DNA from: Sphingomonas sp. 67-36
Lineage (GTDB): Bacteria > Pseudomonadota > Alphaproteobacteria > Sphingomonadales > Sphingomonadaceae
Assembly (NCBI GenBank): GCA_001897375.1
Contig: MKSU01000020.1
Coordinates: forward strand, 1-64,000
Direction of reading: 5' to 3'
Length of the DNA: 64,000 nt
The position numbers and the translations under genes are program-made. The stretch's first letter is position 1. Every line of letters starts with the position of its first letter. Below, in pieces: positions 961 to 24,507 of the stretch. Below the pieces are notes generated by a model that was not told where the DNA came from, made no database searches, and was given only the letters and a program-made list of their open reading frames with translations.

Positions 961-1359
961 ATGGCGAATGAACGAGATGAACGGGCCGCCAGGCTTGCCG
1001 GGCAATTGCGCGCCAACCTCAGGAAGCGGAAGGAGCAGTCGCGCGGGCGTCCGGCCGGCGATCGGGTGGATGCGGAGGGCGCGGCGGAGGATTCGCAGAC
1101 GCGCTGGCCCGGCGCCTCGTACGCATCGGAGGATTCGCAGACGGGCTGGCCCGGCGCCTCGGGCGAGGCGGGGGACTCGTTGACGCGTGGGCCCGATGCC
1201 TCGGGCGGGGCGGGGGACTCGTTGACGCGTGGGCCCGACGCCTCGGGCGGGGTGGGGGACTCGTTGACGCGCGGGCCTGGCGCCTCGGGCGCGGCGGGGG
1301 ATTTGCCGAAGCACCGGCCCGGCGTCCCGGATGCGACCCGGGAATCTTCGAAGCGCTGA
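961..1359 (+). CDS. Small repeat-containing hypothetical protein
   Basis: The product is 132 aa. The start is ATG 961 and opens a basic, helical N-terminus (MANERDERAARLAGQLRANL, then RKRK). This head resembles small conserved Sphingomonas proteins of unknown function. From residue 43 to 126 the protein is built from six tandem 14-residue units, from EDSQTRWPGASYAS through three GDSLTRGPDASGGA-like units to a diverged last copy. The repeats are hydrophilic, rich in Gly, Asp, Ser and Pro, and probably disordered. There is no signal peptide or membrane segment. Because the head is conserved and the repeat tail is clean in frame, I favour a real gene whose tail grew by tandem duplication. Function is unknown. 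Confidence 0.55.
   Translation: MANERDERAARLAGQLRANLRKRKEQSRGRPAGDRVDAEGAAEDSQTRWPGASYASEDSQTGWPGASGEAGDSLTRGPDASGGAGDSLTRGPDASGGVGDSLTRGPGASGAAGDLPKHRPGVPDATRESSKR
1087..1338 (+). repeat. Six 42-bp tandem repeats inside a coding region
   Basis: Six consecutive 42-bp units keep the reading frame and each encodes 14 residues. Units 3 to 5 are nearly identical at DNA level (core GGGGACTCGTTGACGCG). Units 1, 2 and 6 are diverged. The near-identity of the middle copies suggests recent duplication and possible copy-number variation between strains. Confidence 0.85.
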
Positions 1360-17453: not shown

Positions 17454-17790
17454 AGCTTCTGTTGCCCGGCGCTCCCCGTGCCGCTGGAATCCGCTTCTGT
17501 TGCCCGGTGCGGCCCAACCGCGCTTTTGTCCTTGTAATCTAGACCGTTAGGTCACTGATTACGCGGCAATCGCGAGCGCCTCGTTGTCGTTGGCACTTGT
17601 GTACGGGCCGTCACGGTGGTCCCATTCCGGGCAAAAGCCAGCGCTTTTCAACACACGTCGATCCTGGTTCGGCCCCGTCATCATCCGCCCGCAAGGACGG
17701 TTGGTGGTGGAGCCGCCGGGTACTGCCCCCGGGTCCGCTGCGCCTATTAATCGCCGGCGTTTATCGCCATAGCCGTGGGGCAAGCCCCGC
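17450..17790 (-). ncRNA. ssrA: Two-piece (circularly permuted) tmRNA
   Basis: Minus strand. The coding piece starts at about 17676 with GGGGCCGAACCAGGATCGAC, the canonical tmRNA 5' end. Its resume codon and tag ORF are at 17594-17559 and encode ANDNEALAIAA followed by TAA. Helix 5 (GACC TAAC GGTC) and two repeated pseudoknot segments sharing CCGGGCAACAGAAGC follow. The acceptor piece lies upstream: T-arm CCGGG-GGCAGTA-CCCGG and acceptor strand CGGCTCC-A-CCA ending at 17705. The strands GGGGCCG and CGGCTCC pair with one G-U. A 28-nt intervening segment (17704-17677) separates the pieces and is removed in the mature two-piece RNA. The outer ends are approximate. It rescues stalled ribosomes with SmpB. 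Confidence 0.92.
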
Positions 17791-17875
17791 GAGCACGACC
17801 GATATAGGCGCTCGGCACGAAAACGAAAAGCCCGCCTTTCGCTCGCCATAATGCGGGTGCATAGAATAGAGTATC

Positions 17876-21041: not shown

Positions 21042-21575
21042 CCGCCGAAACCGTCTGGGAGGGCCGCTTCATCCGCATGGTGAAGGACGGCAAATGGGAA
21101 TATCCCGCGCTGCCGGGGGATCGGCGCGGCGGTGATCCTCGCCATCACGCCGGGGGACGAGGTGATCCTCGTCGAGCAATATCGCGTGCCGCTCGGCCGC
21201 AATTGCCTTGAGCTGCCCGCCGGGCTGGTCGGCGACGAGCAGGAGGGCGAGGATATCGTCCCCGCCGCGATCCGCGAGCTGGAGGAGGAGACGGGCTATC
21301 GCGCCGGCCGCGTCGAGTCGCTCGGCTTCTTCCATTCCTCGCCCGGCATGGTGAGCGAGGGCTTCACGCTGGTCCGCGCGCACGATCTGATAAGGGTCGG
21401 CGAGGGCGGCGGGGACGGGGACGAGAATATCGTCGTCCATGTCGTCCCGCGCGGCGAGGTGGCGGCCTTCGTCGCCCGCAAGCGCGCCGAGGGCGTCGCG
21501 ATCGATGTGAAGATGCTGCTGCTCCTCGCCGATGCGCTGATCGGCGGGTCAGATCAGCGGAAATTATCCGCGTAG
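21038..21575 (+). pseudogene. Nudix hydrolase (ADP-ribose pyrophosphatase-like), frameshifted
   Basis: The gene starts at ATG 21038, overlapping the previous stop (ATGA). The first 27 codons read MTAETVWEGRFIRMVKDGKW and on to EYPALPG. Homology then moves by one base into another frame: IGAAVILAITPGDEVILVEQ, then the full Nudix box G-x5-E-x7-REL-x-EE-x-G (GDEQEGEDIVPAAIRELEEETGY region). The shift maps to a run of five G at 21115-21119, where one base fewer would restore a single frame. This is either a true inactivating indel, a phase-variable run, or a sequencing error. Internal initiation at GTG 21132 could still give a 147-aa product lacking the N-terminal strand. Confidence 0.8.
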
Positions 21576-21835
21576 GCCTGCAGCTTCAGCTTGCGCTCTG
21601 GCGCGGGTATCACGGTGAAGGCCAGTCCCTCGCGCTCGGCATAGGCGATCGCCGCCTCGCTGGTCGGGAAGCCGAGCCGCACCTGATCGCGCGTGTCGCC
21701 GCTGCCGGCCCAGCCGGTGAGCGGATCGGGGCGCTTGGCCTCGGCCGGTTCGAACTCGAGCACCCAGCGGTCGGTGCGATACTTGCCCGATTGCATGGCG
21801 TTCTTCGGGCGCTGGTAGATGCGAGCGATAGGCAT
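21554..21835 (-). CDS. ETC complex I subunit (NDUFS4-like accessory protein)
   Basis: The 93-aa protein MPIARIYQRPKNAMQSGKYR... contains the conserved core WVLEFEPAEAKRPDPLTGWA and GWAGSGDTRDQV. A second core, RLGFPTSEAAIAYAEREG, follows. This matches the bacterial homologues of the 18-21 kDa accessory subunit of respiratory complex I found in alphaproteobacteria. It is probably peripheral on the cytoplasmic arm. It converges with the Nudix gene and overlaps its end by 22 bases. Its GGGAG ribosome binding site (21841-21845) abuts a large palindromic element. Confidence 0.9.
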   Translation of the reverse strand: MPIARIYQRPKNAMQSGKYRTDRWVLEFEPAEAKRPDPLTGWAGSGDTRDQVRLGFPTSEAAIAYAEREGLAFTVIPAPERKLKLQAYADNFR

Positions 21836-21845
21836 GGCCGCTCCC

Positions 21846-22063
21846 TTAGGGTCAAAGCCCGATCAGAACAACGTCGTGATCGACCGCTTCGCGGCGGGCG
21901 TATTTTGGCGTCATGCCGCGTCAGGGCACCCCGCAAAATATTGCTTTGCGGGAATCGCGTTGCGCGTCGGTCACGATGCAATCGCATCGCTCCCTCCTTG
22001 CTCCTTGCCTGACGCCAAAATACGCTCCGTCACGGCGCCGTTCCGATCGGGTTTTGACCCTAA
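21846..22063. repeat. 218-bp nested palindromic element between two genes
   Basis: The outer arms are 24 bp (TTAGGGTCAAAGCCCGATCA..., 21846-21869) and match the inverted right arm (22040-22063) at 22 positions. The inner arms, GCGTATTTTGGCGTCA (21898-21913 and 22010-22025), match perfectly over 16 bp. Sequence between the arms is also partly complementary. The centre holds a small hairpin CCCGC...GCGGG near 21930-21952. The element supplies the TAG stop of hrpB at 22062-22060 and ends one base before the ribosome binding site of the complex I gene. It has no coding capacity of its own. It could be a MITE-like repeat or a transcribed regulatory structure. Confidence 0.85.
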
Positions 22064-24507
22064 CTCGATCGTCCGCGCCTTGCATCGGCATTTTTCGTGC
22101 GCAGCGTGGCATTGGCGCTCGCGGGGTCGTCCGGCCACGGATGCTTCGGGTAGCGACCGCGCATCTCCTTCGCCACCGCCGCCCAGCTTCCCGCCCAGAA
22201 GCCGGGCAGATCGCGCGTCGTCTGGATCGGGCGCCCGGCGGGCGAGGTGAGGGAGAGGACGAGCGGCACGCGCTCCCCGCCGACGACCGGGTGCTCGGAA
22301 AGCCCGAACAAGGCCTGCACGCGCAGCTCGACGCGCGGGCCGCCCTCCGCACCATAGTCGATCGCATGGGTGCTGCCGGCCGGGCTGGTGAAATGCGCGG
22401 GGGCGACGCGCTCGATGCGCTGGAGGTCGTCCCACGACAGGAGCCCCCGGATCGCGTCGGTCAGCGCGCCGGGCACGATGGCGTCGAGCCTGCGCTTCCC
22501 CTCCACCACCGTTGGCAGCCATTCGTCGAGCCGGTCGAGCAGCGCCGCATCGTCCAGCGGCACGCCGGCGTAAGCGGCGCGGACCCGGAAGGCGCGCGCG
22601 CCGTCGCTCCATGGCAACAGGTCGAGGCCGTGCCGCCGCACCCCCTCGACCAGCGCGGCGGCGATCGTCTCGGGCGAGGCATGGGAGTCTGGCCCGCTCG
22701 ACAGCCGCACCGCGCCGAGCCGGCGCTCGCGCAGCGGCCGCACCGCGCCGGTGGCCGCGTCGAACTCGGCGGTGTGACGCGTCTCGATCCGGTCGGCGAA
22801 CAGCGCCTCGACCGCGTCCGGCTCGATCGCCGCCGCCGAGAGGATGCGCGCGCCTGCCGCCATGCCCTGCGTCTCCGCCACCGCGAGCCATTCGTTGCGC
22901 GCGAGCGGCGAGGCGGGGTCGAGCCGGAAGCCGCGTCCGCCGCCCGACGCCCAGCGCTCGCCCGACGCATCGCGCCGCCGCGCCACGCGATCCGGGAAGG
23001 CGAGGGCGATGCAGGTCGCCACGGCCTCCGCGCCGCCCGCTCGTCCGCCACCACCCGCCAGCTTCGCCCAGCGCGTCGCGAGGCTGCGCGCCGCCTCCGC
23101 CTTGCGCGAGCGGTCGCCGCGCCAGCGTCGCAGCCGCAGTTCCAGATCGGCGTCATTGCCGCCTAGCCCGCGCTCGCCGAGCAGCACCGCGACCTCCGCC
23201 GCCGTCGCCGCCAGCCCCATCTCTCCGGCACGGACCAGCATGTGCGCGAGGCGCGGCGGCATCGGCAAGGCGGCGATGGCGCGGCCGTGCGCGGTCGGGC
23301 GGCCATCCGCGTCGATCGCCTCCAGCACGGCGAGACGCGCGCGCGCCTCCGCCACGGCGGCGTCGGGCGGCGGATCGAGCCATGCGAGGTCGCGCGGATC
23401 GGCGACGCCCCAGATCGCCGACGCCAGCACCAGAGCGGAGAGGTCCGCCTCCAGTATCTCCGGCGGATCGAAGCGCGGCAGGCCGGCGGTAGCCGCCTCC
23501 TCCCACAGCCGATAGGCGACGCCGGGTCGTTGCCGCGCGGCGCGGCCGGCGCGCTGCGTTGCCGCCGCCTGGCTGGCGCGCTCGGTGACGAGCCGCGTCA
23601 TCCCCGCCGCGCGATCGTAGCGCGGGCGGCGCGCGAGGCCGGAATCGACCACCACGCCGATCCCGTCGAGCGTCAGGCTGGTTTCCGCGATCGAGGTGGC
23701 CAGCACCAATTTGCGCGCGCCGTCCGGCTCGGGGCGGATCGCGGCGCGCTGCGCGGCGGGGTCGAGGCTGCCGTGGAGCTTGTGGAGCGTGACGCCGGGC
23801 ACGCCCTCCAGCCGCTCGGCGGTGCGCTCGATCTCGGCCACGCCGGGGAGGAAGGCGAGCACGCCGTCCCTCGTCTCGCGCAGCGCCTGACGGATCGCGC
23901 CGGCCATCGCCTCCTCGATCCGCGTCTCGCCGCCGCGTCCGAGGTAACGCAATTCGAGCGGCCAGCTCCGCCCCGCGCTCTCGATCACCGGCGCGTCGCC
24001 GAGCAGCCGGGCGAAGCGCGCGCCGTCGAGCGTGGCGGACATCGCAAGCAGCCGCAGGTCCGGCCGCAGCCCCGCCTGCGCGTCGATCGCGAGCGCGAGG
24101 CCGAAATCGCCATCGAGGCTGCGCTCGTGCACCTCATCGAACAGCACGGCGGAGACGCCGGCCAGCTCGGGATCGTTCTGGATGCGCGCGACGAAGATGC
24201 CCTCCGTCACCACCGTCACACGCGTCCTGGCGGAGCGTTTGGTGTCGAGGCGCGTGGCATAGCCGAAGGTCTGGCCGACCGGCTCGCCGGCGAGCGCCGC
24301 CATGCGCTCGGCCGCCGCGCGCGCGGCGAGGCGGCGGGGGGAGAGCAGCAGCACCTCGCCGCCGCACCAATCCTCCGCGATCAGCGCGGGCGCGACGGCA
24401 GTCGTCTTGCCCGCGCCCGGCGGCGCGACCAGCACGGCCGCCGATCGCTCGCGCAGCGCGGCGAGCAGATCGGCGAGCACGGCATGGATGGGAAGGTCGG
24501 GCGTCAC
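22060..24507 (-). CDS. hrpB: ATP-dependent helicase HrpB
   Basis: The 815-aa DEAH-type helicase shows Walker A VAPPGAGKTTAV (about 28-39), the DEVH box LFDEVHERSLDGD, motif III SATLDG and motif VI QRAGRAARQRPGVAYRLW. A long HrpB-specific C-terminal domain follows (GSTHAIDYGAEGGPRVELRV, then WPDDPASANATLRTKN near the end). HrpB-type proteins act on RNA; the exact role is unknown. Start is GTG 24507. The stop codon lies inside the right arm of the palindromic element. The complex I gene follows on the same strand. Confidence 0.93.
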   Translation of the reverse strand: MTPDLPIHAVLADLLAALRERSAAVLVAPPGAGKTTAVAPALIAEDWCGGEVLLLSPRRLAARAAAERMAALAGEPVGQTFGYATRLDTKRSARTRVTVVTEGIFVARIQNDPELAGVSAVLFDEVHERSLDGDFGLALAIDAQAGLRPDLRLLAMSATLDGARFARLLGDAPVIESAGRSWPLELRYLGRGGETRIEEAMAGAIRQALRETRDGVLAFLPGVAEIERTAERLEGVPGVTLHKLHGSLDPAAQRAAIRPEPDGARKLVLATSIAETSLTLDGIGVVVDSGLARRPRYDRAAGMTRLVTERASQAAATQRAGRAARQRPGVAYRLWEEAATAGLPRFDPPEILEADLSALVLASAIWGVADPRDLAWLDPPPDAAVAEARARLAVLEAIDADGRPTAHGRAIAALPMPPRLAHMLVRAGEMGLAATAAEVAVLLGERGLGGNDADLELRLRRWRGDRSRKAEAARSLATRWAKLAGGGGRAGGAEAVATCIALAFPDRVARRRDASGERWASGGGRGFRLDPASPLARNEWLAVAETQGMAAGARILSAAAIEPDAVEALFADRIETRHTAEFDAATGAVRPLRERRLGAVRLSSGPDSHASPETIAAALVEGVRRHGLDLLPWSDGARAFRVRAAYAGVPLDDAALLDRLDEWLPTVVEGKRRLDAIVPGALTDAIRGLLSWDDLQRIERVAPAHFTSPAGSTHAIDYGAEGGPRVELRVQALFGLSEHPVVGGERVPLVLSLTSPAGRPIQTTRDLPGFWAGSWAAVAKEMRGRYPKHPWPDDPASANATLRTKNADARRGRSS

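What the first reader, a model, noticed from the sequence alone, without database searches (positions are those of the whole stretch)
21846..22063. Nested palindromic element fitted between a stop codon and a ribosome binding site
The element has 24-bp outer arms, perfect 16-bp inner arms and an inner hairpin. It provides the hrpB stop (TAG inside TTAGGG) and ends next to the GGGAG site of the complex I gene. In RNA it would fold into one long cruciform-like stem. It could be a dispersed sphingomonad MITE, or an RNA processing or regulatory structure that separates expression of two cotranscribed genes.
Basis: partly seen in the sequence, partly recalled or inferred. Interest (0 to 1): 0.75.

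Follow-up and report, generated by a model that had tools for sequence, protein, structure and literature searches.

The report
Mobile palindrome sitting in stop codon
The nested hairpin is one shortened copy of a small mobile DNA repeat family found across this bacterial genus; it jumped into the stop codon of a helicase gene, rebuilt a stop there, and is missing from the same spot in the relatives that could be checked.

Summary
The palindrome is real (fold z -10) but is not a gene-specific RNA. It is a shortened copy (218 bp) of a dispersed, non-coding ~272-bp family: 90 of 201 same-genus genomes, own included, match its consensus half. Of 24 fetched loci with the hrpB/complex I junction only the window has it. 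Close relatives show the empty site CTAA; the window reads T-TA-[GGG...CCC]-TA-A, so the element duplicated TA and turned hrpB's TAA into TAG, leaving the next gene's ribosome site intact. In 28 of 40 cases where a gene runs into a copy it ends at the element's terminal TAG. Copies covary strongly (60 of 85 pairs changed on both sides), yet G.T and A.C mismatches are equal overall (37 each) and gene orientation is balanced: this points to DNA-level upkeep of a palindrome more than to one functional RNA strand. No mobilising transposase was found among three types tested. Verdict: a new variant of the TA-targeting palindromic MITE kind (ERIC/Correia/RUP-like).

The parts
21846..22063 (-).
22030..22060 (-). 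Left terminal inverted repeat (outer stem, hrpB side)
21849..21879 (-). Right terminal inverted repeat (outer stem, complex I side)
22061..22062 (-). Target-site TA, hrpB-side copy; with the element's first G it makes the hrpB stop TAG (22060-22062)
21847..21848 (-). Target-site TA, complex I-side copy
22008..22028 (-). Arm A, 5' strand of the inner stem
21897..21914 (-). Arm A, 3' strand of the inner stem
21984..22009 (-). Conserved purine-rich segment GGCAAGGAGCAAGGAGGGAGCGATGC, unpaired up to the apical hairpin that it leads into
21974..21990 (-). Apical hairpin of arm A (CGATGC-GATT-GCATCG)
21919..21956 (-). Extra hairpin (CCCGCAAAGC..TTTTGCGGGG) inserted in arm A; seven other copies in four genomes (own included) carry its like, and similar hairpins lie outside the element in L024 and L026
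21884..21897 (-). Small hairpin CCGCCGCGAAGCGG between the arms
21875..21886 (-). Likely deletion scar CGGTCG|ATCACG where arm B (about 93 bp) is missing in this copy
22060..24507 (-). hrpB (HrpB_C helicase); ends in the element's TAG
21554..21835 (-). Complex I NDUS4-type subunit gene; its GGGAG ribosome site (21841-21845) abuts the element

Best explanation
A non-autonomous mobile palindrome (MITE-like), canonical length about 272 bp, ends A-GGGTC...GACCC-T. It inserts mostly at a TA (usually YTAR) and duplicates it. TA is scarce here (1.3% of dinucleotides at 67.5% GC), and stop codons hold it, so stop codons are hit often (inferred). Because the element begins with G after TA (or AG after T), either end can rebuild an in-frame TAG, so insertion into a stop codon is nearly silent. 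At this locus it entered the TAA of hrpB. SHOWN: palindrome, dispersal, empty sites, stop reconstruction, covariation. INFERRED: the arms are kept complementary mainly at DNA level (arm-to-arm correction of a cruciform or hairpin, or transposition needing matched ends); this copy later lost arm B by deletion of that hairpin; it is mobilised in trans by an enzyme not yet identified.
For: Dispersal: 3 further good copies in the own genome, matches in 20 of 61 genomes and 90 of 201 same-genus genomes, own included in both; 16, 18 and 14 matches in G140, G097 and G182 (some are two ends of one copy). Not conserved at the locus: 30 of the 60 genomes with the complex I gene had a locus fetched; 24 of the 30 show the hrpB end beside it, 23 of these have gaps of 13-129 nt, too short for the element, and the 24th is the window. 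Empty sites: window TCGAGT-TA-[..]-TA-AGGG against TCGAGCTAAGGG in L244 and CGGGCTAAGG in L243. 29 junctions were looked for; 19 gave an alignment across the junction, 13 at 80% identity or more: 10 show a 2-bp duplication, 2 show 3 bp, 1 is unclear; 7 of the 10 have TA at the site in the relative (my reading of the alignments). Stop codons: 61 sides face a gene's stop, 40 of those genes run into the copy, 28 of the 40 end at the terminal TAG (one third expected by frame, p 2e-6). Covariation: 60 of 85 pairs with double changes, 337 double-changed cells against 82 shuffled and 25-38 with slid partners. DNA level: G.T 37, A.C 37; codirectional genes 18 with and 18 against the element's orientation.
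Against: No transposase partner: IS630 DDE_3 in 5 of 14 carriers, DUF4096 in 9 of 14, Y1/RAYT in 0 of 14, and none of the loci fetched for them (about 1.5 kb each side) holds the terminal repeat. Two well-aligned empty sites lack TA (L178 CTGA, L185 CTCG), one is unclear (L004), two show 3 bp (L239, L056), so a strict TA rule fails; TA stands at both ends in only 32 of 70 copies. Unpaired segments are more conserved than stems (69% against 38% of columns at 90% or more), which a plain MITE with a decaying interior does not explain and a structured RNA would. The G.T/A.C balance hides opposite skews: arm A 19:4, outer 9:17, arm B 7:15. Between genomes, in the closest band, double and single changes are about equal (47:45). 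Movement itself was not observed.
Confidence: 0.85

Rival explanations
1. A structured RNA (processing site, attenuator or sRNA) spread through the genus by duplication and kept for an RNA function such as separating expression of two neighbouring genes.
For: Very strong covariation, conserved unpaired segments including a purine-rich CAAGGAGCAAGGAGGGAG that could meet the ribosome's anti-SD (inference); very stable fold. ERIC and Correia copies are reported to alter mRNA stability through RNase E or RNase III (PMC10969869 and PMC2229807, passages).
Against: Absent from the same junction in 23 of 24 loci, the 24th being the window; no orientation preference to codirectional genes, 18:18; no overall G.U excess over A.C, 37:37, and only about 1.5% of formed pairs are G.T, though arm A alone is 19:4; no Rfam match at the copies tested.
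Confidence: 0.12
2. A REPIN/BIME-like element moved as single-stranded DNA: two inverted homologous hairpin units so that either strand presents one unit.
For: The two halves align: shared terminal repeat, GGCAAGGAGC and GCGACGCCGC around different stems. Short forms keep the ends. Read on each unit's own strand the two inner arms both lean to G.T (arm A 19:4, arm B 15:7), but in few columns.
Confidence: 0.1
3. An ordinary IS630- or IS5-derived MITE whose parent IS was lost or lies outside the genomes sampled (a special case of the best explanation).
For: TA duplication fits IS630 (RUP precedent, PMC2229807 passage); terminal inverted repeats; some carriers hold IS630 or IS5-type genes.
Against: 9 of 14 carriers lack DDE_3, 5 of 14 lack DUF4096, G097 (18 matches) lacks both; no terminal repeat near any such gene fetched. 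Terminal repeats drift while staying matched, unusual if one enzyme reads their sequence.
Confidence: 0.45
4. Chance palindrome or assembly artefact.
For: Several contig ends fall inside copies, so the family does disturb assemblies.
Against: z -10; 70 distinct copies with matched ends, some deep inside long contigs such as G144:C1.
Confidence: 0.01

Closest known systems
ERIC/IRU/RU-1 (enterobacteria)
   Same: Small palindromic repeat with TIRs, TSD and TA at the termini (table passage in PMC2229807); copy number varies between strains (PMC10969869 passage)
   Different: ERIC is 127 bp with a 7-bp contiguous TIR; this is 272 bp with an outer stem of about 31 pairs and two arms; my 272-nt query has no match in 20,395 E. 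coli records
RUP (Streptococcus pneumoniae)
   Same: TA insertion, TIRs, non-coding, intergenic; thought to be moved in trans
   Different: 107 bp and tied to IS630-Spn1; here no IS630 with matching ends was found
Correia/NEMIS (Neisseria)
   Same: TA at ends, 24-bp TIR, long stem-loops, forms of different size (passages)
   Different: Different host, sequence and two-arm layout (sequence not compared by a tool)
CIR (Caulobacter/Brucella)
   Same: Alphaproteobacterial intergenic repeat with arms and TA at termini
   Different: CIR carries the GANTC motif; GANTC is in only 1 of 55 full copies here
REPIN/BIME
   Same: Inverted pair of homologous hairpin units
   Different: No RAYT in 14 carriers tested; much longer (recalled); mostly TA duplication

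Membership tests
MITE (general) | Terminal inverted repeats | tested here: met
   31-pair outer helix, 97.4% of cells paired in 30 copies
MITE (general) | Target-site duplication shown by empty sites | tested here: met
   10 of 13 well-aligned junctions 2 bp, 2 of 13 3 bp, 1 unclear
MITE (general) | Many copies at unrelated loci | tested here: met
MITE (general) | Short and non-coding | tested here: met
   55 of 70 copies 262-290 bp; apical loop length varies 3-6 nt so no frame is kept
MITE (general) | Autonomous parent with the same ends | tested here: inconclusive
   no terminal repeat at the IS630, DUF4096 or Y1 loci; end-pattern rows were listed for only some of nine genomes, and four stretches that looked like wider pairs held only MITE-sized ones on a profile scan
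RUP/IS630 MITE | TA duplication | tested here: met
   7 of 10 two-bp cases have TA in the relative; L178 and L185 do not, L004 is unclear
RUP/IS630 MITE | Matching IS630 in the carrier | tested here: not met
   DDE_3 in 5 of 14 carriers, no matching ends at those loci
REPIN/BIME | RAYT (Y1_Tnp) in the genome | tested here: not met
   0 of 14 carriers
CIR | GANTC motifs | tested here: not met
   1 of 55 copies
ERIC | Sequence similarity | tested here: not met
   no match of a 272-nt consensus-like query in E. coli records, distant mode, E 1e-5
cis-regulatory RNA of hrpB/NDUS4 | Conserved at the orthologous locus | tested here: not met
   23 of 24 syntenic loci lack it, the 24th is the window
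cis-regulatory RNA of hrpB/NDUS4 | Known RNA family | tested here: not met
   Rfam: nothing on the element in the window up to E 1, nothing up to E 0.1 in four loci holding copies
cis-regulatory RNA of hrpB/NDUS4 | Transcript processing at the stem | not testable with these tools
   needs RNA-seq

The most novel reading that the evidence does not exclude
A mobile element recognised by shape: the enzyme or host factor reads the cruciform with its conserved unpaired motifs (CAAGGAGC... and GCGACGCCG in both inverted arms) rather than the terminal repeat sequence, so the long stems are free to drift as long as they pair, arm-to-arm conversion keeps them matched, and TA insertion with a leading G makes stop codons safe landing sites. 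The mobilising machinery would be of a kind not yet linked to MITEs.
Probability: 0.2. Interest if true: 0.78.

Novelty: new variant of a known kind. Interest (0 to 1): 0.5.

Why it matters
It explains a class of large intergenic palindromes in this genus and warns against reading them as gene-specific RNA regulators despite overwhelming covariation. It looks like a natural case in which helices covary strongly without an overall RNA-strand signature, a useful test case for covariation-based RNA discovery. It also shows an insertion logic that hits stop codons yet restores a stop, and leaves an open question: who moves it.

Tried and rejected
Rfam: one sub-threshold hit in 21600-22300, outside the element, and none up to E 0.1 in four loci. 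Plasmids, phages and E. coli records: no match of a 272-nt consensus-like query. Genome contigs pattern scan: a profile confirms the element in only 5 of the 113 stretches: a full copy in Sphingomonas gilva (L092), one across two adjacent stretches of Novosphingobium capsulatum (L100, L083), and partial ones in two contigs of one uncultured Sphingomonas (L131, L153). Contig lengths of L092, L131 and L153 equal those of G097:C17, G140:C17 and G140:C13, so these are probably genomes already counted. Coding function: rejected, loop lengths vary. Loop-loop pairing between arms (CAAGGAGC with GCTCCTTG): possible, but its pairs do not vary, so no evidence either way. Autonomous partner: not found. 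In the rows listed three wider + to - spacings (G000:C15, G182:C11, G064:C30) and one lone end (G097:C10) were fetched; a profile scan found only MITE-sized or 48-bp pairs there and one weak lone end. G030 and G169 rows were never listed. Notes name the complex I gene NDUFA12-like; Pfam says NDUS4. One search's neighbour-context test counted L043 twice (22 rather than 21 divergent); the corrected count is.

Rows dropped: one search gave 88 non-identical hits of which could measure 82; 71 had end-match score 42 or more; L043 appeared in both orientations and is counted once, giving 70. Hits identical over their first 100 nt were collapsed, so recent copies are undercounted. The 14 plus 14 junctions were chosen by me, the first set including unusual ends on purpose. 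The genome labels used for within-genome comparisons were typed by hand for 40 loci.

Full report
WHAT IS THERE. Both neighbours lie on the minus strand: hrpB (22060-24507; HrpB_C) upstream and a complex I NDUS4-type gene (21554-21835; PF04800) downstream. hrpB ends in the TAG inside TTAGGG, and the NDUS4 ribosome site GGGAG abuts the other end.

IT IS A DISPERSED FAMILY. The 218 bp find three further good copies in the own genome, in both orientations; an 86-bp derivative and lone ends exist too. Among 61 genomes 20 match, by genus 3 of 22. The consensus half matches in 90 of 201 same-genus genomes (own genome included in both counts). In six chosen carriers, all candidates scored, matches numbered 16, 18, 14, 5, 7 and 3 (some are two ends of one copy). 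I collected 88 non-identical hits, measured 82 and kept 70 with matched ends. The modal length is 272 bp; 55 of 70 are 262-290 bp, 9 are 166-228 bp, 6 are 311-371 bp. The window copy is the canonical form without arm B (about 93 bp) and with an extra hairpin of about 39 bp. The same kind of hairpin is in seven other copies: L002, L003, L004 (own genome), L044, L187, L188 and L210; it is not in the 311-bp copy L205.

NOT PART OF THIS LOCUS. The NDUS4 protein was found in 60 of 61 genomes and 30 loci were fetched. In 24 of the 30 the hrpB end lies beside it. One is the window; in the other 23 the gap is 13-129 nt, without the element. One of these, L262, holds a different palindromic repeat in the gap. 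In close relatives the junction reads CGGGCTAAGGAAGCGCCCATG (L243) and CGAGCTAAGGGGGCGATCATG (L244); the window reads CGAGT-TA-[GGG...CCC]-TA-AGGGAGCGGCCATG. So the element entered the hrpB stop codon TAA, duplicated TA, and re-created a stop as TAG with its own first G. The ribosome site next to the element is simply the old one.

TARGET RULE. Left ends have A before GGG in 66 of 70 copies and TA in 55 of 70; right ends have TA in 41 of 70; both in 32 of 70. To see empty sites I joined flanks of 28 other copies and searched 81 genomes twice. With the window this makes 29 junctions; 19 gave an alignment across the junction, 13 of them at 80% or better. Reading those 13 by eye: 2-bp duplication in 10 (window, L178, L195, L185, L010, L189, L044, L002, L004, L003), 3 bp in L239 and L056, unclear in L038. 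Seven of the ten have TA at the site in the relative; L178 has CTGA, L185 CTCG, L004 is unclear. In L178 a TGA stop became TAG, in L002 TAG stayed TAG, in the window TAA became TAG. The window has 1.3% TA dinucleotides at 67.5% GC.

STOP CODONS. With a simple GC3-based gene caller, 61 sides face a gene's stop; 40 of these genes run into the element, 28 of them end exactly at the terminal TAG, against one third expected if the frame were random (p 2e-6). The caller is crude. Two explanations combine: TA targets lie in stop codons, and the element's ends make TAG.

COVARIATION. I aligned 30 full-length copies, one per genome, and counted a six-helix structure derived from the same alignment. Of 2,535 cells 96.9% form a standard pair; 60 of 85 pairs have changes on both sides; 337 cells are double-changed against 82 in shuffles and 25-38 when partners are slid. 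Because the structure came from these sequences, the paired percentage leans its way. Shuffles ignore relatedness. Stems are less conserved than unpaired segments (38% against 69% of columns at 90% or more). The unpaired segments include GGCAAGGAGC and GCGACGCCGC, and these occur in both arms in inverted sense, so the consensus is an inverted pair of homologous hairpin units within a shared terminal repeat.

RNA OR DNA. A helix kept as RNA should tolerate G.U on the RNA strand more than A.C. Over all helices G.T is 37 and A.C 37. By helix the skews differ (outer 9:17, arm A 19:4, arm B 7:15), so a unit-wise strand effect is not excluded; in distinct columns it is weak (8:13, 5:4, 6:9). Only about 1.5% of formed pairs are G.T. 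Between copies of one genome with under 10% of pairs differing, double changes outnumber single ones 35 to 12 in 8 comparisons; between genomes in the same band it is 47 to 45 in 14. Comparisons are not independent. Neighbouring genes are divergent in 21, codirectional in 36 (18 in each orientation relative to the element) and convergent in 12 copies, one copy having only one called neighbour. These facts favour palindrome upkeep at DNA level and give no clear sign of one functional RNA strand.

WHO MOVES IT. IS630-type DDE_3 is in 5 of 14 carriers, DUF4096 (IS5 type) in 9 of 14, Y1/RAYT in 0 of 14 carriers and 1 of 14 non-carriers. None of the loci fetched with these genes, about 1.5 kb each side, shows the terminal repeat. 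A terminal-repeat pattern was run on nine genomes and again on three; rows for G030 and G169 were never listed. Stretches where listed ends stood 3-4.5 kb apart held only MITE-sized or 48-bp pairs on a profile scan. The mobiliser is unknown.

COMPARISON. Papers were read as passages only: PMC10969869 and PMC2229807. They describe ERIC, RUP, Correia and CIR as small repeats, mostly palindromic with TA at the ends, and report effects of ERIC and Correia on mRNA stability. This element works like them in insertion and shape; it fails the sequence test for ERIC, the GANTC test of CIR and the RAYT test of REPINs. Searches listed no paper that I recognised, from titles and abstract starts, as describing this family, and one search found no paper holding its motif letters; most subscription papers are not held.

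CONCLUSION. A shortened copy of a genus-wide, stop-codon-tolerant, mostly TA-inserting palindromic MITE-like family with strikingly covarying stems: ordinary in kind, unusual in its covariation and in lacking a known mobiliser.

Noticed in passing
L262 (G012:C101), hrpB/NDUS4 gap: A different palindromic repeat (holding TGAGCTTGTCGAAGGG and CTTCGACAGGCTCAG) occupies the same gene junction in another genome.
   Followed up: no
window 21919-21956; L024 about 1501-1535; L026 about 1501-1530: The hairpin CCCGCAAAGTA.TACTTTGCGGG inside the window copy has relatives outside the element in other genomes, so it looks like a separate short palindromic repeat.
   Followed up: partly
G182:C11:754618-754667; G064:C30:30044-30091: Two 48-50 bp palindromes made of little more than the two terminal repeats, perhaps minimal derivatives.
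   Followed up: partly
G000:C14:73965-74050 (L402): An 86-bp derivative in the own genome with matched ends and only a small central hairpin.
   Followed up: partly
G097:C4:65-143, G182:C22:61-139, G144:C1:3807111-3807189 and others: Several contig ends fall within about 150 bp of an element end; the family seems to break assemblies.
   Followed up: no
L228, L021, L184 (166 bp forms): In three genomes a similar internal deletion joins the arm A 3' unpaired segment to the arm B 3' stem, leaving stems without partners.
   Followed up: partly
window 17468-17800: tmRNA of the permuted type, tag ANDNEALAIAA; ordinary for alphaproteobacteria (recalled).
   Followed up: no
window 1077-1301: Tandem array of a 42-bp unit, 5.4 copies, 85% matches.
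   Followed up: no
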